From JAZDEY01 sp043808325 [NCBI: Candidatus Eiseniibacteriota bacterium] (GTDB lineage Bacteria > Arandabacterota > Arandabacteria > Arandabacterales), in assembly GCA_043808325.1 (NCBI GenBank), contig JAZDEY010000065.1:1-44585 (forward strand): DNA of 44,585 bases, given 5' to 3'. Below the pieces are notes generated by a model. The model saw nothing but the letters and a program-made list of their open reading frames with translations. It had not been told where the DNA came from and made no database searches. The first letter of the stretch is position 1. Every line of letters begins with the position of its first letter. Made by a program: the position numbers and the translations under genes. Positions 10,761-33,672 of this stretch are shown one piece after another.

Positions 10761-11269
10761 TGGAAGGCCGTGCGCAACCGAGAGTCTGGAAATATGGCGA
10801 CAATGTCAATACCGATATGCTCTTCCCGGGTAAGTACACCTATACCTGTAGCACACCCGAGGAAATAGGACCGCACCTTTTGGAGGATCTCGACCCCGCC
10901 TTCACAAAGGAGGCCAAGGCCGGCGACATCATCCTGGCCGGCTCCAACTTCGGATGCGGCAGTTCGCGCGAGCAACCGACCGTGGGGCTCAAGGCACTGG
11001 GCATCAAGGCCGTTGTGGCCAAGAGCTTCGCCCGGATCTTCTATCGCTCGGCCATAAATCAGGGCTTGATCCTCGTCGAGGCGCCCGAGGCGATCGATGC
11101 CTACAAGCCTGGGGATGCCGTCGATCTGGACCCCGAGGCCGGCAAGATCACGGTCGCAGGCAAGGAATTCAGGTTCCCGAAACTTCCGCCTGAGATAATC
11201 GCGATAAGAGATGCCGGCGGATTGCTCGCCCATGTAAGAAAGGAATTGCAGGAAAGGAGGACCCCGTAA
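10760..11269 (+). CDS. LeuD-type hydro-lyase small subunit
   Basis: A 169-residue swivel subunit, a standard size for LeuD-type proteins. Motifs: VWKYGDNVNTDMLFPGKYT near the start, SNFGCGSSREQP and FARIFYRSAINQGL. It should pair with the LeuC-type subunit encoded just upstream to form one hydro-lyase. Start: ATG at 10760, one base overlapping the preceding stop, with GGGAGGTG upstream. The next gene is coupled in the same way (TAATG at 11267-11271). The substrate is uncertain, as for its partner. Confidence 0.85.
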   Translation: MEGRAQPRVWKYGDNVNTDMLFPGKYTYTCSTPEEIGPHLLEDLDPAFTKEAKAGDIILAGSNFGCGSSREQPTVGLKALGIKAVVAKSFARIFYRSAINQGLILVEAPEAIDAYKPGDAVDLDPEAGKITVAGKEFRFPKLPPEIIAIRDAGGLLAHVRKELQERRTP

Positions 11270-12480: not shown

Positions 12481-14036
12481 AACAGGAACTCGTCAAGAAC
12501 GCAATCGGGAAGTTGGTCCCGACCGTCGTAAACGGAAAGGAGCAAGTTCCTTACATGGGTGTGGGCAAATACGCGCCCACGGGCCGCAAGGCCGCGCCAC
12601 CCATTGCCTCAACCAAGGACTATCCTGCGGACGGTAACAAGGTGGTGAAGGATCTTAGGGTGGCCCTCGAGAAGGTGGGTCTCAAGGACGGGATGACCAT
12701 TTCCACCCATCATCACTTTCGGAACGGCGACCTGGTCGCGAACCAGATCTTTGACGCCGCGGCCGCGCTGGGCGTGAAGGACCTTATGTGGTTCCCAAGC
12801 GCCTCCTTCCCCTGCCATGCGCCCCTCATCAAGTATCTTGATAACAGCGTGATTCACCACATCGAGGGCAGCATGAACGGGCCTCTCGGTGAATACACCT
12901 CCCGCGGCAAGATGCAGCGGGGACTGGGGGTGCTCCGAAGTCACGGCGGCCGGTACCAGGCGGTGCAGGACGGCGAGGTCCACATTGATATCGCGGTGAT
13001 CGCAGCCCCGACGGCCGATCCCTTCGGCAACTCCAACGGAGTCACGGGACCGTCGGCCTGCGGCTCGCTCTTCTTCTCGCTGGCCGACTCCCAGTATGCC
13101 GACAAGGTGATCGTGGTGACCGACAATCTCGTGCCCTTCCCCTGTGTCCCCTGGCAAATCCAGGGCAACTACGTTGACTGTGTGGTCGTGATCGATAAGA
13201 TAGGCGACCCGGCCAAGATCGTCTCAGGCACCACCGAGATCACCCGCAGCCCCGATCGGCTCCTGATCGCGGAGATGACCGCCAAATTTGTCAAGCAGGC
13301 CGGCATCATGAAGGACGGCTTCTCCTTCCAGGCCGGCGCGGGAGGCACATCACTGGCCTTCGCAATTTTTCTCAAGGACATGATGAAGCAGGCGGGCATC
13401 AAGGCAAGATTCATCCGCGGCGGCAGCAACAAGTACCTGGTGGAGATGCTGGAAGAGGGGCTCACCGACTACATCCTGGACGGTCAGACCTTTGACCTCC
13501 ACGGCGTGCGCTCGATGCGGGATAACCCGCGTCACGTGGCGACGAGCCCGTTCACCAGCTACAACTATCACGGCAAGGGCAACTTCGGCACCATGGTCGA
13601 CTGTGTGGTGCTGGGTGCGACCGAGGTGGACGTCAACTTCAACGCCAACGTCGTGACCCACTCTGACGGGCTCTTGCTTCACGGCATCGGCGGCTGGCAG
13701 AATTGTCTCTTCTCGGGCTGTACAATTTTGCCGATCCCGTCCTTCCGCGATCGGATCCCGGTGCTCCTGGATGAAGTGACGACGTTGTGCGGCCCCGGAG
13801 AGCTCGTCGATGTGATCGTGACCGAGCGGGGCATCGCAATCAACCCGCGGAGAAAGGATTTGATCGACGCGGTCAAGGGCTCCGATCTCCCGATAAGATC
13901 GATCGAGGACATCAAGGCCGAGGTCGAGGACATCTGCGGTGGGAAGCCCGATAGGGCCAAGTTCAAGGACCGCGTGGTGGCCGCTATCAAGTGGGTCGAC
14001 GGCACCGTGATCGACAGCGTCCGCGAAGTAGAATAA
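12477..14036 (+). CDS. citF: Citrate lyase alpha subunit (citrate:acetyl-ACP transferase)
   Basis: A 519-residue protein matching CitF in length and sequence: STHHHFRNGDLV early on, a glycine-rich FQAGAGGTSLA in the centre, RFIRGGSNKYLVEMLEEGL, and TERGIAINPRR near the end. CitF swaps the acetyl group on the carrier protein for citrate, after which CitE cleaves citryl-ACP. Start: ATG at 12477 overlapping the CitDE stop (ATGA), with GGAGGGAGACGAA upstream. It is the last gene of the operon; the convergent arfB ends 7 bases away. The accessory genes for the prosthetic group and the activating ligase (CitC, CitG, CitX) are not in this window. A citramalate-specific homologue would look the same at this level. 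Confidence 0.88.
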   Translation: MKQELVKNAIGKLVPTVVNGKEQVPYMGVGKYAPTGRKAAPPIASTKDYPADGNKVVKDLRVALEKVGLKDGMTISTHHHFRNGDLVANQIFDAAAALGVKDLMWFPSASFPCHAPLIKYLDNSVIHHIEGSMNGPLGEYTSRGKMQRGLGVLRSHGGRYQAVQDGEVHIDIAVIAAPTADPFGNSNGVTGPSACGSLFFSLADSQYADKVIVVTDNLVPFPCVPWQIQGNYVDCVVVIDKIGDPAKIVSGTTEITRSPDRLLIAEMTAKFVKQAGIMKDGFSFQAGAGGTSLAFAIFLKDMMKQAGIKARFIRGGSNKYLVEMLEEGLTDYILDGQTFDLHGVRSMRDNPRHVATSPFTSYNYHGKGNFGTMVDCVVLGATEVDVNFNANVVTHSDGLLLHGIGGWQNCLFSGCTILPIPSFRDRIPVLLDEVTTLCGPGELVDVIVTERGIAINPRRKDLIDAVKGSDLPIRSIEDIKAEVEDICGGKPDRAKFKDRVVAAIKWVDGTVIDSVREVE

Positions 14037-16492: not shown

Positions 16493-17545
16493 CTACTGAA
16501 TCTTTCTCACTTGATCCTTGAACATCTCGACATAGGGGTCGGGCCGCGTGAGCGTGCCGAAGGCGGAGAGCGCATCGGCCTTGCAGCCGCCGGCACAGGT
16601 GGTGGCAAGCTGGCAGTCACGGCAGAACTCCGGGATCGCGCTTCCGAACTCCTTCACCTGGCTGCTCCCGGCCACTTCCTTGAAGGGCCGCTCCAACAAA
16701 TTGCCAAGGATGATCTTGGAGCGGTTGCACATGCGGAGGTTCCCCGCGGGGTCAATCGCAAAGTACGAGCCCTCACTGGTAGGATCGTTGAGCGGACACA
16801 GGCCCGAGTAGACCTTCTTGAACCTGGAAAGGTCCACCAGACAGGGCTGAATCTGAACACCAGCGCTCAAGCCCACCCGGTATCGCTCGGCGACCCCTGC
16901 CGCTCGGTCAAGCGCCACTTCAATCTGGCGAGGTTCGGGCACAAGGTCACGCCAGGTATCGATACAGGTCCCACCGCAGGCGACCCGATTGAAAAGCAGC
17001 CACTCCACTCCGAGGAGGGCATTCACTTCGACCGTATCCTTGAAAGTGGCGATGTTCTCCTTGGTAGCAACGAAAACCGTTGTTACACGCCCGCCGAGTT
17101 TCTTGACGTTCATGATGGCGTCGATCACTTCGTCGAAATTGCCGGTACGCCCGGCCAGACGATCATGAATCTGCTGGTTGTTGCTGTGAAGCGAGACCTC
17201 AAAATACTTGATGCCGCTATCGAGGCACCGCTGAACAGTCGGCACGTCAAGCAGGGCGCCGTTGCTTATGAGCACCGGCTCCACGCCCCGCGAGGCCATG
17301 AACGAGAAGATCTCAAAGAGGCCCTGCTTGAGCAGCGGCTCCCCACCCGTAACACCGATGTGCTTGCACCCCGTCCCGCCTATCGCCCTGTCGAGGACAG
17401 CTATGGCGTCTTCGGTCGAGAGCTCGTGCTGCGGGTAGTCTGGGTCTTCCTTCCAGACGTTATAGCAGAAGACGCAATCATTCTGGCAGCTCTTGGTGAC
17501 CTCAAAGAGAAGATACTTGTGGTTTCGGCGGCCGTCATCGTTCAT
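16493..17545 (-). CDS. Radical SAM/SPASM peptide-modifying enzyme, copy 2
   Basis: A 350-residue radical-SAM enzyme. The [4Fe-4S] SAM cluster motif is Cys20-Cys24-Cys27 (CQNDCVFC), followed by TGGEP at 66-70. The C-terminal SPASM domain has Cys235, 250, 273, 308, 311, 317 and 321 for auxiliary clusters. The last SPASM cysteine of its paralog (Cys333 there, in AHLCYG) is replaced by Ala-Phe here (ALSAFG), so the cluster ligation may differ. SPASM enzymes such as PqqE and sactisynthases make carbon-carbon or thioether links in precursor peptides. The ATG at 17545 overlaps the end of the upstream paralog by 11 bases, so the two are translationally coupled. Substrate: most likely the two PWxCF peptides encoded upstream, by inference from position. 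Confidence 0.85.
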   Translation of the reverse strand: MNDDGRRNHKYLLFEVTKSCQNDCVFCYNVWKEDPDYPQHELSTEDAIAVLDRAIGGTGCKHIGVTGGEPLLKQGLFEIFSFMASRGVEPVLISNGALLDVPTVQRCLDSGIKYFEVSLHSNNQQIHDRLAGRTGNFDEVIDAIMNVKKLGGRVTTVFVATKENIATFKDTVEVNALLGVEWLLFNRVACGGTCIDTWRDLVPEPRQIEVALDRAAGVAERYRVGLSAGVQIQPCLVDLSRFKKVYSGLCPLNDPTSEGSYFAIDPAGNLRMCNRSKIILGNLLERPFKEVAGSSQVKEFGSAIPEFCRDCQLATTCAGGCKADALSAFGTLTRPDPYVEMFKDQVRKIQ

Positions 17546-18656
17546 GGGCGACCTTTCCGGGTTCCATCGCTTTGAGCTTGAGGAGCGAGGGCCCGGTCTT
17601 GTCTGCCCTGGCCTTCCAGACGCGCAGATAGGGATCCTCGGCCTCGAAGGACCCGTAGCACAGATGGGCCGATGACCGGCAGCCGCCCCGGCAGATCGTA
17701 GCAACAGCGCAATCGCGGCAGTACTCCGGGAGGGTCTCCACGAAGTCCTTCAGGAACTTGGCTCTGGTGATTTCTCTGAAGGATTTCTCAAAGAGATTCC
17801 CCAGAATGTGGGGCGAGTGACTGCACACCTTGAGATTTCCCACGGGATCGATCGCAAACAGAGTGTGCTCCGAGTTGCCGACGGTGCAAAAGCCCGGTGT
17901 TATGTGCTCATGTTCCGAGACGTTTACCAGGCAGGGCAGAATCGGCGTTGAGATCGAGATCGCGATGGGATAACGCTTGGCAACCTCGCTCGCCGCGCCC
18001 AGGGCCTGCTCGAGCATATCGGGGGGCGGCAGAAGCTCCTGCCACCGGGTCATTGCGGCCCCGCCGGGCACGAACCGGCCGAGAGCCACGTTGCGGACGC
18101 CCAGAAGCACGTTGAGCTCCAGGGCGCCGCGAAAGGCCCCGATGTTCTCGCGCACTGCCACAAAGAAGGTATAAACCGTGCCTTTCTGGTTTCGGATGTT
18201 GAGGATACCCTCCACAGCCTTATCGAAGGCTTCGCTGCCGACCAGACGGTCGTGCATGTCGCGCTGGTCGCTCAAGAGGGACACCTGGAAGACGTCGACA
18301 CCCTCCGCGACGCACTTTTCCGCCATATCCTTGGTGAGCAAGGTGCCGTTGGTCACAAGCCCGACCTTCACCTTCTTCTTCTTGATGAACCTGATTACTT
18401 CGAAGATGTCTTCCCGCAAGAGCGGCTCGCCCCCGGAGAGCGTGATCTCATCGCAACCGGTCTCGTCGATCAGCTTGTTGAGCAGCCGCAGCGACTGCCC
18501 GGTTGCAATCTCTCCGGTATCGTGCTCCTCACCGATCTTCCATGCGTTGTAGCAGAACTGGCAGCGCAGATTGCACGACCTCGAGATTTCGTAGGTGAAA
18601 CTCAGTTTCGCAGGTGCCTTCGGCAAAACGCGTACCCCCGGCTTCAAATCCTCCAC
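17535..18656 (-). CDS. Radical SAM/SPASM peptide-modifying enzyme, copy 1
   Basis: A 373-residue enzyme with Cys28-Cys32-Cys35 (CNLRCQFC) binding the SAM cluster, SGGEP at 74-78, and a full SPASM set at Cys242, 257, 278, 313, 316, 322, 326 and 333. It is paralogous to the gene that overlaps its 3' end; both share FCYN.WK after the cluster motif and a GN[LF]L[FE]..F.E segment in the SPASM region. It begins 91 bases after the second precursor peptide gene, which strongly suggests that peptide is its substrate. Start: GTG at 18656 with GAGG six bases upstream. The reaction (thioether, aryl-alkyl or Cys-centred crosslink) cannot be read from sequence. No PqqD-like domain is attached; that domain sits on the membrane protease of the same operon. 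Confidence 0.87.
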   Translation of the reverse strand: MEDLKPGVRVLPKAPAKLSFTYEISRSCNLRCQFCYNAWKIGEEHDTGEIATGQSLRLLNKLIDETGCDEITLSGGEPLLREDIFEVIRFIKKKKVKVGLVTNGTLLTKDMAEKCVAEGVDVFQVSLLSDQRDMHDRLVGSEAFDKAVEGILNIRNQKGTVYTFFVAVRENIGAFRGALELNVLLGVRNVALGRFVPGGAAMTRWQELLPPPDMLEQALGAASEVAKRYPIAISISTPILPCLVNVSEHEHITPGFCTVGNSEHTLFAIDPVGNLKVCSHSPHILGNLFEKSFREITRAKFLKDFVETLPEYCRDCAVATICRGGCRSSAHLCYGSFEAEDPYLRVWKARADKTGPSLLKLKAMEPGKVAHER

Positions 18657-18747
18657 CGCGGCCTCGCCGGCCTTCCGACAGCCAAGGAGAAGGGAATGCG
18701 GCAGTCAACACTTAAGAGTATGCTTCTAGAATCCGTCCTGCCTCAGA

Positions 18748-18882
18748 TTAGATGTGAGGCATGAAGCATAGCCACGGCCTGGTGGCAACTTTGTCCTCGA
18801 GCTCCTCTACCTCGAGCTCCTCGAGAAGCTTCCTGCGGAGCTCGTCGTTCCTAAGGGCATCCAAGATCAGCTGCTTGCTCAT
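18748..18882 (-). CDS. RiPP precursor peptide 2, core PWLCFMPHI
   Basis: A 44-residue peptide read from ATG 18882 to TAA 18748, with an AAAGGTGGTG ribosome-binding site. It begins MSKQLILDALRNDELR, continues through an acidic helical stretch (LLEELEVEELE) and VATR, and ends with PWLCFMPHI. It is identical at 30 of 44 positions to the peptide at 19026-19160, with no insertions. The leader (residues 1-29) is more conserved than the end (36-44), where only Pro36, Trp37, Cys39, Phe40 and Pro42 are shared. That leader/core pattern is typical of ribosomally made, modified peptides. It lies between two B12-type and two SPASM-type radical-SAM genes. Function of the product unknown. Confidence 0.85.
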   Translation of the reverse strand: MSKQLILDALRNDELRRKLLEELEVEELEDKVATRPWLCFMPHI

Positions 18883-19025
18883 TCACGTCACCACCTTTCG
18901 AGGATGTTTCCTGTCAGGCACCACTCGATCAAAACCTTGAATCTGCCGCATCCCTCCTGCCTTAGCACCAATCCTTGCGTATCATGGTGGCACGCGACCC
19001 AATCACGCCAAACCCGGCCTGGGAA

Positions 19026-19160
19026 CTACCAAGCCGGTCTAAAGCAAATCCAAGGCTTCGCTGCGACTCTCTCCTCGAGCTCCTCGACTTCGAGCTCCTC
19101 AAGAAGGTGTTTTCTCAGCTCATCGTTGTTGAGGGCTTCCATGATCAGATCCTTGCTCAT
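19026..19160 (-). CDS. RiPP precursor peptide 1, core PWICFRPAW
   Basis: A 44-residue peptide read from ATG 19160 to TAG 19026. It has a near-perfect ribosome-binding site, GGAGGTGATC, five bases upstream, suggesting high translation, as expected for a substrate peptide. The leader begins MSKDLIMEALNNDELR, runs through LLEELEVEELE and VAAK, and the core is PWICFRPAW. The leader should form an amphipathic acidic helix that could bind the PqqD-like domain encoded upstream in the operon. The core has two Trp, one Cys, one Phe and two Pro; Trp37, Cys39 and Phe40 are plausible modification sites. The second copy lies 143 bases downstream on the same strand. I know of no described family with this core motif, but could not search. 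Confidence 0.87.
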   Translation of the reverse strand: MSKDLIMEALNNDELRKHLLEELEVEELEERVAAKPWICFRPAW

Positions 19161-19267
19161 CCAGATCACCTCCTCAGACAACTTCACTTGCCGACACAAT
19201 CAGTCCCCGCCGGTCGCGTGCCGCCCACTGTCGGGACCAATCTTGAGATTCATCGTTCTTGCAATCC

Positions 19268-20653
19268 TCAGACCGCGATTCCGAACTTCTCACAGAATTT
19301 CTCGAGATATCGCGCCTTCTCCTCGATGCCGTCGCTCCTTATGTAGTAGAAGCCTTCGAATATGTCCGGATACGTCTTTATCATGCTTTTGAATTCCGCA
19401 GGCAGCTCGGCTCGTTTGCGGCTCATTCCCGGCGTGATGTTGCCAAGCGAGGCAAACACCGAACACAGCTTGTCCGAGAACCCGAGCCTGTCACGGTACT
19501 CGATTCCCAGGCGCGAAAGCGGCATCGGGGAGAGCAGTTTGAGGCCCGCCATCGCACCCAGGTGCCACATGGAGACCACGCTGAAGATTGTGCTCTTGAA
19601 ATCATCCATGGTCTCAAAGGGAAAGCCCCATATGTATGATGTTACTATCTTCTTCATGTGCTTGGTGGCCATCTCGACCTTTTGCGTGGCCTGCTCGATG
19701 GTGAACCTCTTGTTGATCTTGGCGAGCACGCTGTCAGATCCGGATTCGATCCCAAGGAACAGGGCGTCGCAGCCGGCAGCGGCCATCCTCCCCAAGAGTT
19801 CTTCATCGAGGGTGTCCACCCGCGACAGACATGACCACTTAAGGCCCAGGGGTGTGATTTCCCTGAGCAGGGTCTCGGTCCGGCTTCTCTGAAGCGTGAA
19901 GGTGTCATCGGCGAAACTCACGCGCCCGAGCCCGTAGGTCTTCTTCAAGAGCTCGAGCTCCTCCATAACATTCTCCACACTCCGCAAGACCACGCGATTG
20001 CCCCACAGCGGTCCGACGTCACAGAAGGCGCAATTGAACGGGCAGCCACGGCCCGAGACCACGGCAAATCTGGTGTAATCGGCCATCCTCACGGCGTGAT
20101 ACGCAGGCATCGGGATCTCGTCGAGGTTCTTGAATCGGGGGCGAGCCGGGTTCTCGCAAGCCGAGCCATTGCTGCGGTAGGTGATACCCAGGACCGATGC
20201 AAGGTCGGCCTCAGTCTTCAGGGCCTGCACCAACTCAACCAGGGTAGCCTCTCCCTCTCCTTTCGCCACAACATCTATCCAAGGCATCGAGTCCACTATC
20301 GCCTTCGCGGCTCCCGAAGGTCCGGGCCCGCCTAGAATGATCTTGTGCTCGGAATGGCTCTCCTTGAAGCGCTTGGTTCCGAGTAGCACGAAGGGCAGCA
20401 TGGAGACCATGCAGCTTACGCCCAGAATCGGGGCCGAGTCCGCGAGAAAATCCTGGAAGGCATCAAGGCTCAAGGGATACTCGTACTTGGAACAGAAGAG
20501 TTGATAGTCCCGGAAATCAACCCGGTAGCCGGCTTGCTCGAGGGCCGAAACAAGATAGAGAGCACCCAGGGGAAGGTATACGTCCTTCTGCTTCTCGACC
20601 TCTGAAGGCATCGGAAGCGAAACATTGACCAATGTCAGATCGTATTCCGACAA
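19268..20653 (-). CDS. B12-binding radical SAM enzyme, copy 2
   Basis: A 461-residue class-B-type radical-SAM protein. Residues 1-150 form a Rossmann-like cobalamin-binding domain (LPLGALYLVSALEQAGY, IILGGPGPSG, VVAKGEGEATLVEL). The radical-SAM core follows, with Cys204-Cys208-Cys211 (CPFNCAFC), then FADDTFTL and GIESGSDSVL. Enzymes with this layout often methylate unreactive carbons using methylcobalamin, but others do ring contraction or other chemistry. The protein is a clear paralog of the next gene upstream; the two overlap by 19 bases, so translation is coupled. The first precursor peptide begins 107 bases after its stop. By position the substrate is probably one or both peptides. Confidence 0.85.
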   Translation of the reverse strand: MSEYDLTLVNVSLPMPSEVEKQKDVYLPLGALYLVSALEQAGYRVDFRDYQLFCSKYEYPLSLDAFQDFLADSAPILGVSCMVSMLPFVLLGTKRFKESHSEHKIILGGPGPSGAAKAIVDSMPWIDVVAKGEGEATLVELVQALKTEADLASVLGITYRSNGSACENPARPRFKNLDEIPMPAYHAVRMADYTRFAVVSGRGCPFNCAFCDVGPLWGNRVVLRSVENVMEELELLKKTYGLGRVSFADDTFTLQRSRTETLLREITPLGLKWSCLSRVDTLDEELLGRMAAAGCDALFLGIESGSDSVLAKINKRFTIEQATQKVEMATKHMKKIVTSYIWGFPFETMDDFKSTIFSVVSMWHLGAMAGLKLLSPMPLSRLGIEYRDRLGFSDKLCSVFASLGNITPGMSRKRAELPAEFKSMIKTYPDIFEGFYYIRSDGIEEKARYLEKFCEKFGIAV

Positions 20654-22032
20654 GGGACGGTATCCTCCATCTGCCAGTAGCGGCCAAGCGACCGCACGAT
20701 TTCGGTTTTCCTCTCAAAACCGTCCGTGGGAAAGCCGTAGAATGATGGGAAGATCTTTGGGAACGTCCTCACCAGATCGATTACCTCTGGCGGACAGCCC
20801 GCCACCTGGAAGGGCTCGCGGCCCGAATATGAACCGGCCTCGTCGAGCCATCGAATGTCCTCGCCGTATTGCTCATAAAGGGGCATCAGCGGGAACGGAG
20901 CGAGCCGGTTCAAGCGGCTATCGACCCCAATCTGCGAGAGATAAACCATCAAGAGCAGCGTCCTCATCAAATCCTGTTCGGTCTCAAACGGGAATCCCCA
21001 GATAAAGGATGCCACGGGCTTCATGTACTCAAGAGTGAGTGTAAGCGCTTCCAGGGCCTCGCCGACCGTGAAGTCCTTATTCACCTCGTCGAGGACTCTG
21101 TCGGAACCCGACTCGATTCCGAAGAACATGGCCTCACACCCGCTGGAGGCCATCTCAGCGAGCAAGTCCCGCGTGACAAGATTAACTCTACCGGTGCACG
21201 ACCACTTGATGTCCAGGCCGTCGTGCTTGAGTCTGCCGCAGAACTCCATCACCTTGTCCCGACCTAGCACGAAGGTCTCATCGGTAAACTCGAAATGCCG
21301 CCGGCCATACTTGCCCTTGAGCAACTTGATCTCATCGACGATGCTATCGACACTGCGCTGGAAATTCTTCCTCTGCCACATCGGCGCCACGTCGCAGAAG
21401 GTGCAGCGATAAGGGCAGCCCCGCGAGAAGACGATATTGGCCATCGGATAGTCCTCGACCTTCACGGCTTCATAGAGCGGCAGGGGAAGCTGGTCGAGGT
21501 CTCGTATCCTTTCCCTCGCAGGTGTGAGGCAGGCCTCGGTTCCGTCCCGGAAGCAGATGCCCTGAATCTGGCCGAGTGCCCGGCGGCCCGGGGCCCTGCC
21601 ACCCGGGGCCCTGCCACCATCGCAGAGGCACTCCACGAGCTCGAGCATCGTGTGTTCTCCCTCGCCCACGACCACAATATCTATGAAGGGAAAACTCCGG
21701 ATCAGCTCGCGTGCCACACCGGTGGGCCCCGGGCCGCCGAGGATCACCGTCTTCTCGGGGTTGGCTGCTTTGAATTGCGCGAGCGCCGCAACCACAAAGG
21801 GCAGGGTATCGCTCATGCAGCTTATACCCACGACGCCCGCCGACCCCGTGAGATGAGAGCGGATAAGGGCAGGCTCGAGCTGCCAGTAGGAGTCTCGAGT
21901 GCACGTAGCGAAGTCCACCCCATAGCCGGCTCGGCGGAGGACCGCGGCGATATAGAGCGCACCGACGGGGATGGTTCTAGGGTTGCTTACACCGACATGG
22001 ACCAGAGTCACATCGGGGGGTCCGGTCTTCAA
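20635..22032 (-). CDS. B12-binding radical SAM enzyme, copy 1
   Basis: A 465-residue protein with a cobalamin-binding domain (IPVGALYIAAVLRRAGY, VILGGPGPTG, VVVGEGEHTML) followed by the radical-SAM motif Cys206-Cys210-Cys213 (CPYRCTFC), FTDETFVLG and GIESGSDRVL. It starts at TTG 22032, overlapping the TGA of the TPR gene by four bases, with GGAGGG seven bases upstream. It overlaps the next paralog by 19 bases. Between the B12 domain and the core lies a short Arg/Gly/Pro/Ala insertion (GGRAPGGRAPGRR) made by a perfect 15-base duplication. The likely role is methylation or another radical modification of the precursor peptides. Confidence 0.85.
   Translation of the reverse strand: MKTGPPDVTLVHVGVSNPRTIPVGALYIAAVLRRAGYGVDFATCTRDSYWQLEPALIRSHLTGSAGVVGISCMSDTLPFVVAALAQFKAANPEKTVILGGPGPTGVARELIRSFPFIDIVVVGEGEHTMLELVECLCDGGRAPGGRAPGRRALGQIQGICFRDGTEACLTPARERIRDLDQLPLPLYEAVKVEDYPMANIVFSRGCPYRCTFCDVAPMWQRKNFQRSVDSIVDEIKLLKGKYGRRHFEFTDETFVLGRDKVMEFCGRLKHDGLDIKWSCTGRVNLVTRDLLAEMASSGCEAMFFGIESGSDRVLDEVNKDFTVGEALEALTLTLEYMKPVASFIWGFPFETEQDLMRTLLLMVYLSQIGVDSRLNRLAPFPLMPLYEQYGEDIRWLDEAGSYSGREPFQVAGCPPEVIDLVRTFPKIFPSFYGFPTDGFERKTEIVRSLGRYWQMEDTVPCRNTI
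21588..21617 (-). repeat. Perfect 15-base tandem duplication inside B12 radical-SAM copy 1
   Basis: CCGGGGCCCTGCCAC occurs twice in direct succession (21588-21602 and 21603-21617). On the minus strand it encodes a repeated RAPG-type loop between the cobalamin-binding and radical-SAM domains. The frame is kept. Confidence 0.9.
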
Positions 22033-22874
22033 GACTTCCCTCCGTCGGTGCGCGCATCCTCCGCGAGCCCGCCGAGCTCGAGCGCTCGCCGCATGTGCTC
22101 CTCGGCTCCGGCCTCGTTGCCCTGCTCAAAACAGGCCAGGGCAAGCTTGCGCTGGGTGCTCGCGTGGTCAGGATCGATCGCGACCGCTCGCGCCAACACC
22201 ACGGCAGCGTCCTCGAATCGCCGCGCCTTGATGTGGAGAGTGCCCAGATTCCGCAGACCGGAGAGCAGACCTGGATCGATCCCAAGAGCTATCTTGAGCG
22301 CGGCCTCCGCCCGGTCGAGCCGGCCCATTGCCAGATATGACGTGCCCAGATTGACATGCAGGTGCGGGTCCCGCGGGCGCACGACAGCCGCTTGTTCGAA
22401 TTCGCAAGCGGCCTCAGCGTAGCGTCGCTGCGCGTAGTAAGCACGCCCCAATTCCTGACGGAGTAACCACGCCTCAGACGAGTCAGGGTTCTTATCAAGA
22501 CCGGTGCGAAATGATTTGATGGCGTGACCCGGATTGCCCTGCTGTGCGTGGAGCCGGCCTTGCGCTCGCCAGATACGCAGAACCTGCGGCATCCCATCCA
22601 GGGCTCGCGCAAGACGGGTGAGTGCTTCGGCGGGCTTGCCATTCTCGGCGCACACCAGGCCTAGGCAGTAGTGGGCCGACCAGTAGTCGGCCCTGTCCCG
22701 AAGGGCCCGGCGGAAGCATCCCTCGGCCTCGTCCAACCTGCCCAGGGCCGCGGCGCCGACGCCGCAAGCGTAGCACGCCTCCGGGCTTTCAGCCCGGGCT
22801 CCGAGCGCCGCCTTGAACTCCGTGAAGGTTCTATCGAGCACAACATCTACCCGCGAGAAGACCACGTCGTGCAC
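22029..22874 (-). CDS. TPR-repeat protein of the RiPP operon
   Basis: A 281-residue protein made almost entirely of tetratricopeptide repeats, about seven 34-residue units. Examples are GAAALGRLDEAEGCFRRAL, LGRAYYAQRRYAEAACEFEQA, LGTSYLAMGRLDRAEAALKIA and LGTLHIKARRFEDAAVVLARA. No signal peptide or catalytic motif is visible, so it is probably a cytoplasmic scaffold. It is followed with a four-base overlap by a B12 radical-SAM gene, so it belongs to the operon. A role in holding enzymes or precursor peptides together is an inference. Start: GTG at 22874 with GAGG seven bases upstream. Reading on to an ATG at 22991 is possible but adds a stretch that does not look like protein. Confidence 0.75.
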   Translation of the reverse strand: MHDVVFSRVDVVLDRTFTEFKAALGARAESPEACYACGVGAAALGRLDEAEGCFRRALRDRADYWSAHYCLGLVCAENGKPAEALTRLARALDGMPQVLRIWRAQGRLHAQQGNPGHAIKSFRTGLDKNPDSSEAWLLRQELGRAYYAQRRYAEAACEFEQAAVVRPRDPHLHVNLGTSYLAMGRLDRAEAALKIALGIDPGLLSGLRNLGTLHIKARRFEDAAVVLARAVAIDPDHASTQRKLALACFEQGNEAGAEEHMRRALELGGLAEDARTDGGKS

Positions 22875-23031
22875 GAGCGCCTCACATCCCTGTAAGGTGC
22901 CTTGTCCGGTTGGAATTCCGATCGGAATCCGCCCCACCCACGGAGTAGTAAACCACAGAATCCGATGATTGTCAAGATGGATTGGGCACACCGGAGATCC
23001 CCACTAACCCATTGAGGTTGCGCGTGTTGCA

Positions 23032-24153
23032 TTATCTGATAATCGACAGAATGAAGGACCCTATCTTGAATACCACAAACACCAGGAGCCCCACCGAATA
23101 AGCACCCGCCAATACGCCATAGACGAGATAGATTCTCTTCTCCCGCGGGGTGGTCTCGCGGACTTGCCGGCCGGCCCGAGAGAACCGGCCTTTGACCTTC
23201 GATCCGAGGTAGGCAAAGGCGCGCCTGCGTAGATTGGGGATCTCAAGATAATCGCTCAGCAGATAATAGCCGTCCAGTTTGATCAGGGGATTGAAATTGA
23301 AGAGAGCCGTGAGCCCTGCGACCGCGATGGTGATCGCACAGGCATCGCTCAGCCAGGTTTCGCGGCCGACCGCAAGCCACACGACGGCAGCAATGCCGTA
23401 GATCACCAGCTGAAAGAAGGTGCCGGCCGCGGAGACCCAGAGTCGCCTAGCCTTGGCTTTGAAGAGCCAGGCGTCGCTGACGTTGCAGTAAAAGGCCGGC
23501 ACCAGATAGATCAAGAGAAAGCCTATTTCATGAACCTTGCCGCCATAGTGCTTGCAGGTAAGCCCATGGGCAAACTCGTGAAGAGTCGTCACCACCGCCA
23601 CCACCAGAATGAAGGTGGGTATCGACTCCGGACGGAAAAGGTCTCTCGCCTGGGCTGCGTAGGCGTCCCACTTGTAGCTTGTTATGGCCACTGCAACCAG
23701 AGTGATCGCACTCACAAGGACCACGAACTGCCAGGTGAAGAAGAACCTGCTGCGAGGTAGCAGTACACTTAGGAGCCTATCGGGATCAATCGCCTTGAGC
23801 CTGAGATGGAGCAGCCTGCCCAAGCCCCGGTCTTCGGAGCCGGCCTGCCGCTGCGCCCTGGCGAGATCTCTTGCCGGGAGGCCGGTCTCCACCAGACACA
23901 GATCGGTTATGCGCTCGATGAATCGCTCGATGCTCGGACCGGAAGGGGCAGTGTCGAATTCCTCCCGGAATCTCGCCTGAATCTCATCGAGCGGGGTCTT
24001 GCCATCGAGCCGCCGGGCGATAAAGTACTCATGGCTCTTCAGCCGGAAGAACTTCCTGGTGATCGGGTCCTTGATGACATAGTAGGTCTCGTCACCCTGG
24101 ACCAGTTCGCTTACGACCAGGTCTTCACGGAGTTTCGGATATTCGCTGCGCAT
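23032..24153 (-). CDS. PqqD-like (RRE) domain fused to a site-2-type membrane metalloprotease
   Basis: A 373-residue protein. Residues 1-90 resemble PqqD, the RiPP recognition element that grips leader peptides (VVSELVQGDETYYVIKDP, FRLKSHEYFIARRLDG, DEIQARFREEF). The rest is an M50 (site-2) membrane protease: about six hydrophobic segments, the zinc motif HEFAH (192-196) and the second motif NPLIKLDG (288-295) with the third zinc ligand Asp294. M50 proteins occur in the YydFGHIJ epipeptide operon of Bacillus (YydH), which supports a role in leader removal or maturation. Start: ATG 24153 with a weak GGATG site; a TTG at 24195 is an alternative. It is the first gene of the operon, 157 bases before the TPR gene. 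Confidence 0.85.
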   Translation of the reverse strand: MRSEYPKLREDLVVSELVQGDETYYVIKDPITRKFFRLKSHEYFIARRLDGKTPLDEIQARFREEFDTAPSGPSIERFIERITDLCLVETGLPARDLARAQRQAGSEDRGLGRLLHLRLKAIDPDRLLSVLLPRSRFFFTWQFVVLVSAITLVAVAITSYKWDAYAAQARDLFRPESIPTFILVVAVVTTLHEFAHGLTCKHYGGKVHEIGFLLIYLVPAFYCNVSDAWLFKAKARRLWVSAAGTFFQLVIYGIAAVVWLAVGRETWLSDACAITIAVAGLTALFNFNPLIKLDGYYLLSDYLEIPNLRRRAFAYLGSKVKGRFSRAGRQVRETTPREKRIYLVYGVLAGAYSVGLLVFVVFKIGSFILSIIR

Positions 24154-25295: not shown

Positions 25296-26426
25296 TTGAA
25301 GAAGGTAATAATCGCGGTGGTCATAGTGGCTGTCGTCGCCACGGTCTTCGTGGTGTACAAGAAGGGTCATACGCCCAAGATACCCGAGATGCGGATCGTT
25401 GCGGTCCAGAAGGGCAATATCACCAAGGCCGTCGTGGCCACTGGCGAGATACGGCCGCTTGCGGTCGCCGAGGTCAGATCGAGGATCGGCGGCGTGGTGC
25501 GCAAGTTCTTCGTCGAGGAAGGGCAGCCGGTGGCCAAAGGCCAGAAGCTTGCCGAGATCGTGCCTTCAGCTACTCCGGGGGAGCTCCTGGCTGCGAGAGA
25601 GACCGTGAAGACCGCCAGGCTCCAGCTTGATCAATCCAGGCGAAACCTCGAGCGGCTCGAGGGTCTGGCTGCCAAGAACCTGGTTTCCGATAAGGAGACC
25701 GAGGACGCCGAGACCCGGCTAGCCATAGATGAGGCGCGCTATGATGCAGCCCTGGCCGGGCTCCAGGTACTCGAGCAAGGATCCTCGACGGGCAAGTCGG
25801 ACGCCGAGACGGGCGCGGGTGGCGAGCCAGGAAGCGCGAGAAGCAATGTGACCACCGAAGCCCTGGCGGACATGACCCTCACGTCGCCGGTCGCCGGCAT
25901 CGTGCTTTCCCGCAACGTAGATGAAGGTTCATCGGTTATCGCGATGTCATCGGCCTACGGTGGAACCAGCATCATGACCCTTGCAGATGTTTCGACCATG
26001 CATTTTGAAGGTGACGTCGACGAGAGCGACGTCGGGAAAATAGAAGATGGGATGCCCGCAAAGATTTTCGTCGATGCTTTCCCCGACACCTCTTTCCGGG
26101 GCACACTCACGAGGATTGCCCCCCAGGGGGTCAAGGCCGAGGGTGTGGTGAACTTCAAGGTGGAGGCTCAGGTACTGGGCGACACCAGACCCTTGAAAAC
26201 GGGCATGTCTGCCGATGTCCAGCTGGTGCTCGATGAGCGGAAGGATGTGCTCTCGCTGCCCGAGGGGGCCATCATCTACGAGGGCGACAGCACCTATGTA
26301 GAAAAGGTGGATGCAGCGGCCCAGGGCGGCAAGAAGCGTGCCGTCATAAAGACCGGTTTGAGCGACGGCATCAAGACCGAGATCCTGAGCGGCCTCTACG
26401 AGGGCGATAAGGTAGTGATGCAGTGA
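25296..26426 (+). CDS. MacA/HlyD-family periplasmic adaptor protein
   Basis: A 376-residue membrane fusion protein. It has one N-terminal transmembrane segment (VIIAVVIVAVVATVFVVY), a lipoyl/barrel-sandwich half-motif (SRIGGVVRKFFVEEGQPVAKG), a coiled-coil hairpin (about residues 110-165), the second lipoyl half (TSPVAGIVLSRNVDEGS) and a beta-barrel domain. In MacAB-type transporters this protein bridges the inner-membrane permease to an outer-membrane TolC-type channel. Start: TTG at 25296 with AAAGGAGG seven bases upstream. The permease follows, separated by a REP-like hairpin. It could export the RiPP product or an unrelated substrate. Confidence 0.85.
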   Translation: MKKVIIAVVIVAVVATVFVVYKKGHTPKIPEMRIVAVQKGNITKAVVATGEIRPLAVAEVRSRIGGVVRKFFVEEGQPVAKGQKLAEIVPSATPGELLAARETVKTARLQLDQSRRNLERLEGLAAKNLVSDKETEDAETRLAIDEARYDAALAGLQVLEQGSSTGKSDAETGAGGEPGSARSNVTTEALADMTLTSPVAGIVLSRNVDEGSSVIAMSSAYGGTSIMTLADVSTMHFEGDVDESDVGKIEDGMPAKIFVDAFPDTSFRGTLTRIAPQGVKAEGVVNFKVEAQVLGDTRPLKTGMSADVQLVLDERKDVLSLPEGAIIYEGDSTYVEKVDAAAQGGKKRAVIKTGLSDGIKTEILSGLYEGDKVVMQ

Positions 26427-26452: not shown

Positions 26453-26480
26453 GGGACACATGGGAAATGGGGTGTGTCCC
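26453..26480. repeat. Short REP-like hairpin between adaptor and permease genes
   Basis: GGGACACA (26453-26460) and TGTGTCCC (26473-26480) form an eight-base perfect stem with a 12-base loop. The core matches the arms of the inverted repeat at 1431-1534. It occupies the place where the permease's ribosome-binding site should be. Confidence 0.65.
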
Positions 26481-26484
26481 TATT

Positions 26485-29001
26485 ATGAGGGTTGATGATC
26501 TTCTCTTACAATCGCTAAGGGCGGTCTCGAGACAGAAGCGGCGCAACGCTTTCGCGGCCTTCGGCATTGCCTGGGGCGTGGCGAGCGTCCTGATTCTTGC
26601 CGGCTGGGGCGTCGGGCTCGAGAAGCTGATGAAGGACGGGATGAATGCCCTTGGCGATAACATCATCTTCATGTTCCAGGGCCACACGTCGCAGGGAGTG
26701 GGCGGCTACCGCGCCGGCCGACCGGTATTTCTTTACCCCGAGGACGTGGATGTAATCAAGGCCTATTCCTCCAAGCTCAAGCTGGTGGTACCCGAGGACG
26801 AGTACACGTTGCCGGTCGCGCGCGGAGCGAAGACCGAGGAACACACGATACGGGCCGTGATGCCCGACGCCAAGACCCTGCGGAATCTCTGGGCCGAACA
26901 AGGCCGTTTTTTCACTCCCGACGATATCGCCGAGAAGCGGCGAGTGTGCTTCCTGGGCAAGAAGATCAGGGAGCAATTCTTCGAAAAGGGCGAGGAGCCC
27001 GTGGGTCAGGAGCTGAGGCTTGGAGGCATCCGATTCACGGTAGTCGGACTCCTCCCCGAGAAGAAGCAGATGGCCAACATCGGCACCCGCGACGAGAGTA
27101 TCGTGTTTATCCCCTTCTCCACGGGCAGGAGCCTTTTTGCGGGGCGCAGGCCGCTCTTCTGTATACAGGGGAGGGCCTTCGACGTCAACCAGAGTGAAGA
27201 GGCCGCGGTTGAGATGAGAAAGGCTCTCGCCGGGAAATACCATTACGCCCTCGACGATGAAGAAGCCGTATTCGTGCTCCCGATGACCAAGTTCACCAAG
27301 ATGATCGATCGGATGGCCGCTGCCATCCGCATCTTCGTGGCCGCGGTAGGCGCAATAACGCTTGCGATCGGCGGCATCGGCGTGATGAACATGATGCTGG
27401 TATCGGTCAACGAGAGGATCGGAGAGATCGGTATCCGCCGCGCCGTGGGCGGCCGCAGACGGTGGATAATGCTCCAGGTGTTGACCGAGACTTTCATTGT
27501 GACCATCGTGGCAGGCGCGATCGGCCTGGCCCTGGGCCTCGGGGTACTCTTCGTGATTTCGAAACTCCCTGTCCCCGACTACGTACCCTTGCCGATTCTC
27601 TCGTGGAACGTAACCCTGCTCGCGGTCGTGGTGATGGTTGCGACCGCACTGCTTTCGGGCATCACGCCCGCGCGGAGGGCCGCTGGTGTTCCTCCCGTTC
27701 AGGCAATCAAGGGCGATATCGGGTTATCTAGGGGCCCCGCCGGCCGGCGCCACAGCGCGCTTCTCTTCCCGGGCCTTTTCGGAGAAATGGTCTCGCAGGC
27801 CGTGGACGACATAAGAGCGAACCGCTTGCGGGCCGCGCTGACCGCCTTTGGGGTCTTCTGGGGTGTCGCGGCGGTCGCGCTGCTCATGGGTTGGGGGGAC
27901 GGGATGCAGGCGCAGATGTTGGAGAATATCGCCCAGATCGGCGGCCGAAGAACCGCGGTTTATCCCAGAAGAATCGAGAACCCCATAAGCGGCATGAAGC
28001 GAGCGGAATATCTCAGGTTCACCCAGCAAGATGTAGCCGACATCGAGACCAATGCGTGGTTCATCGAGTACTTCACTCCCGAAATCGAGATGGGATTCCC
28101 CGTCGTGGAATACGGGGGCGAGTCGCGGGCGATCAACACGTTGGGGGTTGTGCCCGACGTGAAGATCGTAAGGAACTTCGAAGTCGCCCAGGGTAGATTC
28201 ATAAATCAACGCGACATCGACGAGCGGCGCAAAGTCGCTTTCCTCGGAGCGGCCTCAAAGGAGAAACTCTTCGGCGCCGCCGAGGCGCTTGGCAGGAACA
28301 TCCGGCTCAAGGGCAAGATCTTCTGCGTGGTGGGAATCGCCGTCAAGAAGGGAGAGCAGACTTCAATCGAGAACTCCCTGGACGACGACAAGATCATGAT
28401 ACCCTATACGACCGCTCAGGTTCTCACGGGACTGCGACGGCCGGAGTACTTCCAGTTGCACCCGACCACTGCTATCCCCTACAAAGAGGTCGAAAAGGGT
28501 CTCCGCAGGATCATTCTCGGCAACCACGGCACCGATAAGGAAGATGCGATCGGGATCTACTCTGCGCTCGAGGCCGTCGAGGAGATGAACAAGATGAACC
28601 GGGGCCTCGGGGTGTTCCTGGGAGGCGTCGGTCTTGTAACTCTCCTGATCGGAGGCATCGGCGTTGCTAACGTGATGTTCGTCTCAGTGGCGCAGCGTAC
28701 CCGGGAGATCGGGGTACGCCGGGCGATCGGCGCCAAGAAATCCCACGTCTTCCTTCAATTCGTGTCCGAGGCGATAATGATCTGCTTTGCCGGCGGGATC
28801 CTCGGCATCCTCGCTGCGGTCGGTATCTCCAAGGTGATGGCGGCGCTACCGCTGCCTCAGTTCTTTGCCGCCCCCGCGATCAACGGGCCATTGATGCTTC
28901 TGATCTTCGCGTTCATCGTGGGCACTGGAATCATCTCGGGCATATTCCCTGCAAAGAAAGCCTCGGACTCCAATGTGATCGAGAGCCTTCACTACGAGTA
29001 G
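26485..29001 (+). CDS. ABC transporter permease with two MacB/FtsX modules in tandem
   Basis: An 838-residue membrane protein built of two similar halves. Each half has one N-terminal transmembrane helix, a large periplasmic MacB core domain and three further helices of the FtsX type. Matching motifs are GGIGVMNMMLVSVNERIGEIGIRR in part (first half) and GGIGVANVMFVSVAQRTREIG (second half). MacB normally works as a dimer of four-helix subunits, so one chain here could supply a full permease. No ATP-binding domain is present in it or in a neighbour, so the ATPase must be encoded elsewhere. Start: ATG 26485 gives MRVDDLLLQSLRAV, a usual beginning. A start at 26467 is possible. Neither has a clear Shine-Dalgarno sequence because of the hairpin. 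The convergent OsmC gene ends three bases away. Confidence 0.82.
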   Translation: MRVDDLLLQSLRAVSRQKRRNAFAAFGIAWGVASVLILAGWGVGLEKLMKDGMNALGDNIIFMFQGHTSQGVGGYRAGRPVFLYPEDVDVIKAYSSKLKLVVPEDEYTLPVARGAKTEEHTIRAVMPDAKTLRNLWAEQGRFFTPDDIAEKRRVCFLGKKIREQFFEKGEEPVGQELRLGGIRFTVVGLLPEKKQMANIGTRDESIVFIPFSTGRSLFAGRRPLFCIQGRAFDVNQSEEAAVEMRKALAGKYHYALDDEEAVFVLPMTKFTKMIDRMAAAIRIFVAAVGAITLAIGGIGVMNMMLVSVNERIGEIGIRRAVGGRRRWIMLQVLTETFIVTIVAGAIGLALGLGVLFVISKLPVPDYVPLPILSWNVTLLAVVVMVATALLSGITPARRAAGVPPVQAIKGDIGLSRGPAGRRHSALLFPGLFGEMVSQAVDDIRANRLRAALTAFGVFWGVAAVALLMGWGDGMQAQMLENIAQIGGRRTAVYPRRIENPISGMKRAEYLRFTQQDVADIETNAWFIEYFTPEIEMGFPVVEYGGESRAINTLGVVPDVKIVRNFEVAQGRFINQRDIDERRKVAFLGAASKEKLFGAAEALGRNIRLKGKIFCVVGIAVKKGEQTSIENSLDDDKIMIPYTTAQVLTGLRRPEYFQLHPTTAIPYKEVEKGLRRIILGNHGTDKEDAIGIYSALEAVEEMNKMNRGLGVFLGGVGLVTLLIGGIGVANVMFVSVAQRTREIGVRRAIGAKKSHVFLQFVSEAIMICFAGGILGILAAVGISKVMAALPLPQFFAAPAINGPLMLLIFAFIVGTGIISGIFPAKKASDSNVIESLHYE

Positions 29002-33605: not shown

Positions 33606-33672
33606 GGGAAACCTCCCAACTCCACCTACGAGAAATCTATAATATGGGTTTCTGCGTGGCAAGCACCTTGCC

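What the first reader, a model, noticed from the sequence alone, without database searches (positions are those of the whole stretch)
16493..24153. Probable new radical-SAM RiPP system with duplicated parts
One leftward operon holds two tiny paralogous precursor peptides, two SPASM radical-SAM enzymes, two B12-binding radical-SAM enzymes, a TPR protein and a PqqD-like/site-2 protease fusion. Most junctions overlap by 4-19 bases, and the precursors sit between the two enzyme pairs. PqqD-like domains, SPASM enzymes and B12 radical-SAM enzymes are all established RiPP maturation parts. I know of no described class that combines all of them with a PWxCF core. The 2+2+2 set looks like duplication of a one-precursor, one-SPASM, one-B12-enzyme module.
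Basis: partly seen in the sequence, partly recalled or inferred. Interest (0 to 1): 0.95.

Follow-up and report, generated by a model that had tools for sequence, protein, structure and literature searches.

The report
Orphan radical-SAM peptide gene cluster
An uncultured bacterium carries a gene set that most likely makes two small, chemically altered peptides using four radical enzymes and a membrane protease that recognises the peptides, a combination for which no described example was found.

Summary
The genes are there. On the minus strand, 16493-24153 encodes an RRE-site-2-protease fusion, a TPR protein, two B12-radical-SAM enzymes, two 44-residue peptides and two SPASM enzymes. One detail is wrong: 3 of 7 junctions overlap, not most. 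The peptides are genuine genes (codon-position differences 8/7/23). The key new evidence is a shared leader. Of 80 relatives of the RRE-protease (17 phylum-level labels), 60 have small ORFs matching a 'VEELEERIAP' profile within 2.5 kb; none matches in the 609 kb further away. That profile, built without the window, ranks the two window peptides first and second of 4,545 ORFs. The AlphaFold model shows an RRE like lasso-peptide B1 proteins plus an S2P-like core. This ties the peptides to the protease, as in daptides (PMC10036551). Each enzyme pair is monophyletic. No homologous operon turned up in 1,050 genomes of five phyla. Verdict: a very probable RiPP cluster, a new variant on an RRE-S2P/leader platform. 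The chemistry (cross-link plus C-methylation on PWxCF) is inferred.

The parts
23032..24153 (-). RRE-site-2 protease (M50) fusion, 373 aa from ATG at 24153; lacks the long C-terminal (HlyD-like) part of most relatives
   Evidence: NCBIfam daptide_HExxH 215.5 bits (cut-off 300); HExxH and NPLIKLDG motifs read in the sequence; AlphaFold pLDDT 88.6, Foldseek/VIA matches
23884..24153 (-). RRE domain (about residues 1-90): three strands then three helices
   Evidence: VIA Z 10.9 to lasso-peptide B1 RREs 6jx3/5v1v, Z 8.1 to PqqD 5sxy
22029..22991 (-). TPR-repeat protein, 320 aa, role unknown
   Evidence: Pfam TPR families
20635..22032 (-). B12-binding radical-SAM enzyme b (P0004), 465 aa, TTG start
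   Evidence: PF02310 66.7 bits and PF04055 87.9 bits; best NCBIfam ApyD 190.8 bits, cut-off 750
19268..20653 (-). B12-binding radical-SAM enzyme a (P0003), 461 aa, TTG start
   Evidence: PF02310 45.7 bits and PF04055 89.3 bits; 38% identical to P0004
19026..19160 (-). Precursor peptide 1, 44 aa
   Evidence: Shine-Dalgarno-like GAGGTGAT; coding signature; leader profile first of 4545 ORFs
19062..19097 (-). Leader motif of precursor 1 (ELEVEELEERVA)
   Evidence: hmmsearch alignment, residues 22-33
19029..19061 (-). Inferred core of precursor 1 (AKPWICFRPAW)
   Evidence: inference: everything after the leader motif
18748..18882 (-). Precursor peptide 2, 44 aa
   Evidence: as precursor 1; second of 4545 ORFs
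18784..18819 (-). Leader motif of precursor 2 (ELEVEELEDKVA)
   Evidence: hmmsearch alignment, residues 22-33
18751..18783 (-). Inferred core of precursor 2 (TRPWLCFMPHI)
   Evidence: inference: everything after the leader motif
17535..18656 (-). SPASM radical-SAM enzyme 2 (P0002), 373 aa, GTG start
   Evidence: PF04055 and PF13186 above cut-off; model's best matches include SkfB, SuiB, BlsE, anSME and PqqE
16493..17545 (-). SPASM radical-SAM enzyme 1 (P0001), 350 aa from ATG at 17545
   Evidence: PF04055 and PF13186; 39% identical to P0002
25296..29001 (+). Divergent MacA-like adaptor (25296-26426) and MacB-like ABC permease (26467-29001): candidate exporter, assignment inferred from nearness only
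   Evidence: NCBIfam RND_mfp 154 bits over cut-off 94.9; MacB 312 bits, cut-off 966

Best explanation
This is a RiPP cluster. Two ribosomal 44-residue precursors carry a leader that ends in a recognition motif (LEVEELE[E/D][R/K]VA) and a core of about 11 residues ([A/T][K/R]PW[I/L]CF[R/M]Pxx). The RRE domain of the RRE-S2P fusion binds that motif. Two SPASM enzymes most likely make a cross-link at the invariant Trp/Cys/Phe, and two B12-radical-SAM enzymes most likely C-methylate core residues. The membrane protease then removes the leader near the motif's end, and an exporter, perhaps the adjacent MacAB, releases the peptides. Shown here by computation: gene content, coding nature of the peptides, RRE and S2P folds in a predicted model, the leader-protease linkage, paralogy of each enzyme pair. 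Inferred: that the peptides are the substrates of the four radical enzymes, the binding, the reactions, the cleavage site, export and the product's role.
For: Same-strand gene set with radical-SAM, SPASM and B12-binding domains. Precursor coding signature 8/7/23. Leader profile from other loci ranks both peptides first and second of 4545 ORFs (E 0.0042 and 0.0059, next 6.2), and 0 of 5000 shuffles of each reach the score (for precursor 2 the best shuffle is close, 13.1 v 14.4 bits). With one segment per locus and the nearest clade left out: E 0.003 and 0.015, next 4.8. Profile hits lie beside 60 of 80 RRE-S2P genes and nowhere in 609 kb further off. The leader-first search in 47 Eisenbacteria genomes found 4 genomes at E<=1e-4, all 4 beside an RRE-S2P gene, though one of them (G108) is a locus already in the profile. 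Structure: RRE + S2P. SPASM profile closest to PqqE, SkfB, SuiB and 5wgg, all RiPP maturases. A relative (L024) sits in a RiPP-like cluster with a Cys-rich peptide and an MNIO at 301.7 bits.
Against: No second operon with this enzyme set was found. The nearest SPASM relatives stand without B12 enzyme or RRE-S2P by tblastn and without a leader-profile hit. Many leader peptides elsewhere have low-complexity tails, and radical-SAM relatives of the window enzymes were found by tblastn in only 1 of the 80 RRE-S2P loci, so the leader alone does not prove modification. 20 of 80 RRE-S2P loci show no leader hit, among them the sister protein's locus L056, which is frameshifted and near a contig end. 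The shared motif is short (12 residues), the first 21 residues of the window leaders are not shared, and E-values are modest. No PqqD/RRE hit in the four radical enzymes; of these only P0002 was modelled.
Confidence: 0.8

Rival explanations
1. Carrier-peptide (pearlin-like) system: the 44-mers are scaffolds, a C-terminal residue is modified by the radical enzymes and the M50 protease clips off a small amino-acid product, as TmoG and TglG do.
For: The tmo cluster has a B12-rSAM, an RRE protein and a metalloprotease (passages of PMC9303977), called M50 in PMC10885120 (passages). TglG is predicted to contain an RRE (passage of PMC9016710). The pearlin peptide BhaA carries an EDKVA sequence whose deletion abolished ligation (passage of PMC11962472), like EDKVA in precursor 2. 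The L024 peptide weakly matches the ammosamide/lymphostin leader model (21.3 bits, cut-off 30).
Against: No peptide-aminoacyl-tRNA ligase or other LanB-like gene was seen in the operon. PWxCF is ribosomally encoded and shared by the two precursors, while their last two residues differ (AW, HI).
Confidence: 0.1
2. The radical-SAM enzymes serve another pathway, for instance tetrapyrrole or lipid chemistry, and only the protease and peptides belong together as an unmodified exported-peptide system.
For: Best NCBIfam matches include NirJ2, AhbD and BchE. Relatives of the window's radical enzymes were found in only 1 of 80 RRE-S2P loci and no radical-SAM-like ORF in 11 leader-first regions.
Against: No match reaches a cut-off (122 of 500, 117.5 of 500, 144 of 481 bits). 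The SPASM profile is closest to peptide maturases. The peptides lie between the two enzyme pairs on the same strand with no excess of terminator-like sites, and the cores lack the low-complexity repeats of the unmodified-looking relatives.
Confidence: 0.06
3. The product is a peptide-derived redox cofactor or metal ligand retained by the cell, not an exported antibiotic-like peptide.
For: PqqE is the nearest solved SPASM relative by profile (8.7e-43). Both cores share one Trp and one Cys next to an aromatic residue. The long C-terminal part of 69 of 80 relatives (>=600 aa), adaptor-like in those compared, is missing here.
Against: A membrane protease and an adjacent MacAB-like pair suggest export. 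No dehydrogenase was found among the operon genes.
Confidence: 0.12

Closest known systems
Daptides (RRE-peptidase MpaP; PMC10036551, passages read)
   Same: RRE fused to an intramembrane site-2 protease, several short ORFs nearby with a conserved acidic leader motif (ELExMEAP there, VEELEERVA here); P0006's best NCBIfam model is daptide_HExxH
   Different: score below the cut-off (215.5 v 300); no C-terminal Thr; no Fe-alcohol dehydrogenase, DUF-RRE, aminotransferase or methyltransferase found in the operon
Pearlins, tmo and tgl clusters (PMC9303977, PMC9016710, passages read)
   Same: B12-radical-SAM enzyme, RRE and M50 protease in one cluster (tmo); RRE predicted in the peptidase TglG
   Different: no PEARL ligase and no MNIO here; two SPASM enzymes here and none among the tmo genes listed
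Epipeptides (EpeX/EpeP; PMC10885120, passages read)
   Same: an intramembrane M50 protease in a RiPP cluster (its radical-SAM epimerase EpeE: name from the PDB listing)
   Different: P0006 is far below the YydH/LiaK cut-off (46.1 v 225); B12 enzymes and an RRE fused to the protease here
Aminopyruvatide (ApyD; PMC10635010, passages read)
   Same: ApyD is the best NCBIfam match of both B12 enzymes and methylates Tyr C-beta in a RiPP
   Different: scores 183 and 191 of a 750 cut-off; no P450, MNIO or SAM methyltransferase found here; ApyD is described as RRE-containing, these enzymes match only the first 434 or fewer of 645 model positions
SPASM RiPP maturases PqqE, SkfB, SuiB, CteB (the name CteB for 5wgg is recalled)
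   Same: fold and profile
   Different: no RRE hit in the enzymes; no NCBIfam subfamily shown reaches its cut-off

Membership tests
RiPP cluster (general) | short ribosomal precursor encoded beside modifying enzymes | tested here: met
   two paralogous coding 44-mers between enzyme pairs
RiPP cluster (general) | leader recognised by an RRE | tested here: inconclusive
   RRE fold and conserved leader motif shown; binding not tested
RiPP cluster (general) | post-translational modification of the core | not testable with these tools
   needs mass spectrometry
Daptide | RRE-site-2 protease fusion | tested here: met
   NCBIfam daptide_HExxH 215.5 bits but below its 300 cut-off
Daptide | invariant C-terminal Thr in the precursor | tested here: not met
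   precursors end in W and I
Daptide | oxidative decarboxylase, aminotransferase and methyltransferase in the cluster | tested here: not met
   none among the operon genes; the one aminotransferase seen in the scanned window genes is about 15 kb away (228-1430)
Pearlin | peptide-aminoacyl-tRNA ligase (PEARL) | tested here: not met
   none among the operon genes or the 20 neighbours scanned
Epipeptide | YydH/LiaK-type protease | tested here: not met
   46.1 of 225 bits
Aminopyruvatide | MNIO (class-defining according to the authors) | tested here: not met
   no PF05114 hit among the operon proteins
Sactipeptide/ranthipeptide or cyclophane RiPP | specific cross-link made by a SPASM enzyme | not testable with these tools
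   SPASM domain and fold met; bond type unknown; scores below cut-off for the StsB, PapB, DynA and WgkB models where these were listed

The most novel reading that the evidence does not exclude
The window holds the founding member of a RiPP class in which paired SPASM and B12-radical-SAM enzymes build on a leader/RRE-S2P platform. That platform (VEELEERIAP leaders with RRE-S2P, usually extended by an HlyD-like part) is itself an undescribed, cross-phylum peptide maturation and export system of which this is one chemically elaborated branch.
Probability: 0.5. Interest if true: 0.78.

Novelty: new variant of a known kind. Interest (0 to 1): 0.64.

Why it matters
It gives a concrete, compact substrate (an 11-residue core in which P, W, C, F and P are shared by both precursors) for four radical enzymes, so the chemistry could be assigned by gene omission. 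It also supplies a leader motif that links small peptides to one protease family under about 15 phylum labels. That motif can be used to find further clusters that class-based mining misses, such as the L024 MNIO cluster.

Tried and rejected
Chance ORFs: rejected by the codon-position pattern 8/7/23 and by the leader profile. Own genome: not held. PWxC-type tails in the first 86 loci: 13 regular-expression matches, none resembling the precursors by eye. Precursor profile A1 in 80 Krumholzibacteriota genomes: 6 matches at E<=0.1, partial, the best E 0.00665, taken as noise. SPASM profile A2: 3 of 80 Krumholzibacteriota genomes (E<=1e-25), 0 of 47 Eisenbacteria (E<=1e-40), 1 of 396 Acidobacteriota, 1 of 132 Zixibacteria and 0 of 395 of the phylum of G104, the last three at E<=1e-45; at most 5 candidates per genome were scored. 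Regions of 16-20 kb were read for 4 of the 5 hits and only 4 kb for the fifth (G054): no B12 enzyme or RRE-S2P by tblastn, no leader-profile hit; small ORFs were also listed for L125, L116 and L127, not for L117. B12 query P0003 in 37 genomes: 18 with matches at E<=1e-30, identities up to 36%, no locus with all parts among the regions read. Viral contigs with P0002, A3 and A1: 2, 16 and 340 pattern matches, none confirmed by tblastn, a weak test for a 44-mer. Plasmids with P0002: 315 records, all under 60% identity, best row 29.7%. PADLOC: viperin models for the SPASM enzymes and PDC-M51A for the B12 enzymes, read as general radical-SAM similarity; PHROGs likewise. Solved structures matching P0006 by sequence: none at E<=0.1. 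Recalled idea that the 'Tig' clusters pair B12 and SPASM enzymes: dropped, because the passages read (PMC9062424) do not say so. A motif filter for radical-SAM ORFs near the 80 RRE-S2P genes gave none, but it missed the one known in L056, so I rely on tblastn. Literature: the strings EELEERIAP, LEERIAP, LEQRIAP and ELEERIAPG occur in 6 held papers, none on this subject judging by the titles; PqqD+M50+HlyD together in no held paper; the listings of searches showed no class with SPASM + B12 + RRE-S2P. Most subscription papers are not held.
Full report
Observation. On the minus strand of the window, from 24153 down to 16493, eight genes follow one another: an RRE-S2P fusion (P0006), a TPR protein (P0005), two B12-binding radical-SAM enzymes (P0004, P0003), two 44-residue peptides, and two SPASM radical-SAM enzymes (P0002, P0001). 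Domain scans support each enzyme call. The junctions are gap 40, overlap 4, overlap 19, gap 107, gap 143, gap 91 and overlap 11, so three of seven overlap. The scan for terminator-like sites gives no excess over chance (7 found, 7.3 expected). A gene with a carboxypeptidase-regulatory-like domain and a glycosyltransferase continue on the same strand; whether they belong is unknown.

The peptides are genes. They are MSKDLIMEALNNDELRKHLLEELEVEELEERVAAKPWICFRPAW and MSKQLILDALRNDELRRKLLEELEVEELEDKVATRPWLCFMPHI, 68% identical. Between them first, second and third codon positions differ at 8, 7 and 23 sites, and only 5 of 13 fourfold sites agree, near the 0.33 expected by chance. Selection on the protein with saturated synonymous sites means real and old paralogues. 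Each has a purine-rich site before its ATG. No further close copy occurs in the window (next tblastn match E 0.014).

The protease. P0006 scores 215.5 bits against the daptide intramembrane protease model (cut-off 300). A scan of genome contigs returned the best 80 of 230 relatives. Of these, 69 are 600 residues or longer, 6 are shorter (one of them frameshifted) and 5 run off a contig; 32 of the 75 closed ones end in RVEFWSWW or KVEFWSWW and others in variants. The long C-terminal parts look HlyD-like; the window's own MacA matches them by blastp (best E 3e-17, best 8 rows shown). The window protein stops before that part. In the tree, the window protein is sister to L056 of a Krumholzibacteriia bin (100/94), inside a seven-row group that also holds the stand-alone L024. 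L056 has an HlyD-like stretch (read by eye) and then a B12-radical-SAM gene cut by the contig end (B12-binding 59 bits; Radical_SAM 23.8, under its cut-off, on the partial sequence). The AlphaFold model (41 sequences, pLDDT 88.6) shows three strands and three helices, then a helical membrane core. Residues 4-90 match lasso-peptide B1 RREs (Z 10.9, rmsd 2.4-2.5 over 83) and PqqD (Z 8.1); the rest matches RseP, the M. jannaschii S2P and SpoIVFB (Z 9.5 to 11.0, a range that helical bundles can reach by arrangement alone; Foldseek E 3.7e-4 for the S2P and the HExxH and NPLIKLDG motifs support it).

The link between protease and peptides. Next to the relatives lie small ORFs with a common motif, for example MNDATRLQVEELEERIAPGALGNPGNN (L009) or MRHLNLELEKLEQRIAPGGVASCGG (L045, Eisenbacteria). 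A regular-expression search gave 73 peptides in 48 of 80 loci. A profile built from them, with L024 and the window left out, ranks the two window peptides first and second of 4,545 ORFs (594 from the window, the rest from the other loci then held, L081-L127), E 0.0042 and 0.0059, the next at 6.2; none of 5,000 shuffles of each reaches its score (best shuffles 10.6 v 14.9 and 13.1 v 14.4 bits). Using one segment per locus and leaving out the nearest clade gives E 0.003 and 0.015, the next at 4.8. In the 80 loci the profile finds 96 hits at E<=0.05 within 2.5 kb of the protease gene in 60 loci and none in the remaining 609 kb; 20 loci have no hit. These figures are partly circular, since the profile comes from near ORFs, so I also went the other way. 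A search by leader alone in 47 Eisenbacteria genomes gave 4 genomes at E<=1e-4, each beside an RRE-S2P gene; one (G108) is the L045 locus already in the profile. In 396 Acidobacteriota genomes it gave 13 at E<=1e-4, five of them genomes already known from the protease scan. Of 11 regions fetched from the other eight, 7 hold an RRE-S2P gene (two of them contigs already seen, two with weak matches), and of the four without, two have the peptide at a contig end. By record titles and hand-made labels, the loci with hits fall under 15 of 17 phylum-level labels (which also counts one hit inside a protease ORF); one 'Actinobacteria' record groups tightly with a Gemmatimonadetes one and may be misbinned.

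A related cluster. L024 (Acidobacteria) has a stand-alone RRE-S2P, a 54-residue peptide with the motif followed by a Cys-rich tail (CGGCSGCALPGCSTC), an MNIO (301.7 bits), an asparagine synthase and a 2OG-Fe oxygenase. This shows the protease-leader pair in a second, different RiPP-like setting. Many other loci have low-complexity peptide tails, and relatives of the window's radical enzymes were found by tblastn in only 1 of the 80 loci (L056) and in none of the 11 leader-first regions; there the system may only export peptides.

The radical enzymes. P0001 and P0002 are 39% identical, P0003 and P0004 38%. Each pair is a clade against the relatives I could collect (99/97 and 100/99; 12 and 26 rows, one fragment dropped by the program). 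A profile of 11 SPASM sequences is closest to PqqE, SkfB, SuiB and 5wgg among solved structures, and the model of P0002 (pLDDT 83.6) to SkfB, SuiB, BlsE, anSME and PqqE. The B12 enzymes' best family match is ApyD, far below its cut-off; ApyD methylates the C-beta of a Tyr (PMC10635010, passages). None of the listed NCBIfam radical-SAM models reaches its cut-off (best 25 shown per protein).

How rare. With the SPASM pair as a profile I searched 80, 47, 396, 132 and 395 genomes of five phyla (1,050 in all, thresholds from 1e-25 to 1e-45); five genomes had hits, none with a B12 enzyme, an RRE-S2P or a leader peptide in what I read. This is a sample of a few phyla, and in two of the searches only five candidates per genome were scored. 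The window's host is nearest Eisenbacteria by one aminotransferase (56% to G125, next 52% over a part and 50% over the whole, 42 genomes) and weakly by QueG (best score in G108 at 32%, 36 genomes), so its lineage is poorly represented.

Mechanism. I propose: RRE binds the EELE[E/D][R/K]VA leader; SPASM enzymes cross-link at Trp/Cys/Phe; B12 enzymes C-methylate; the S2P cuts the leader in the membrane; MacAB-like neighbours may export. Only the first step has computational support beyond gene content. [quoted passage not shown]

Comparison and verdict. It works like a daptide or pearlin cluster in leader recognition and proteolysis, but it is neither: C-terminal Thr and the daptide enzymes are absent, and no PEARL ligase was found. 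I rate it a new variant of a known kind, with an even chance that it founds a class.

Noticed in passing
L001-L080, e.g. L009:8749-9452, L045:9578-9748, L029:52-804: RRE-S2P proteins, mostly with a long HlyD-like C-terminal part, with one to four small 'VEELEERIAP' peptides beside them under about 15 phylum labels; many tails are low complexity (GSKGSK, NPGNNNP, GYEGQPGNQGG, GSANPEG). Possibly an undescribed peptide export system.
   Followed up: partly
L024:5558-11791: Stand-alone RRE-S2P with a Cys-rich 54-aa peptide, MNIO, asparagine synthase and 2OG-Fe oxygenase: looks like a separate RiPP cluster.
   Followed up: partly
L025:7837-8315 (also L022:11714-12067): Tandem array of four (three in L022) near-identical 31-aa leader-type peptides every 125-129 nt, opposite in strand to the RRE-S2P gene.
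   Followed up: no
L056:6208-9192: Sister RRE-S2P (frameshifted) followed by an HlyD-like stretch and a B12-radical-SAM gene cut by the contig end; no leader peptide found.
   Followed up: partly
window 11269-14036: Citrate lyase CitD-like and CitE-like parts in one ORF next to CitF, downstream of aconitase-family and isocitrate-dehydrogenase-like genes.
   Followed up: no
window 32256-33662: ORF whose first part matches the N-terminus of ribonucleotide reductases (ATP-cone, name recalled) and whose second part matches uridine kinase.
   Followed up: no
L127:9101-10565, L116:6973-8561, L125:8725-10646: SPASM enzymes nearest to the window pair, each directly preceded by a protein without Pfam match.
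   Followed up: partly
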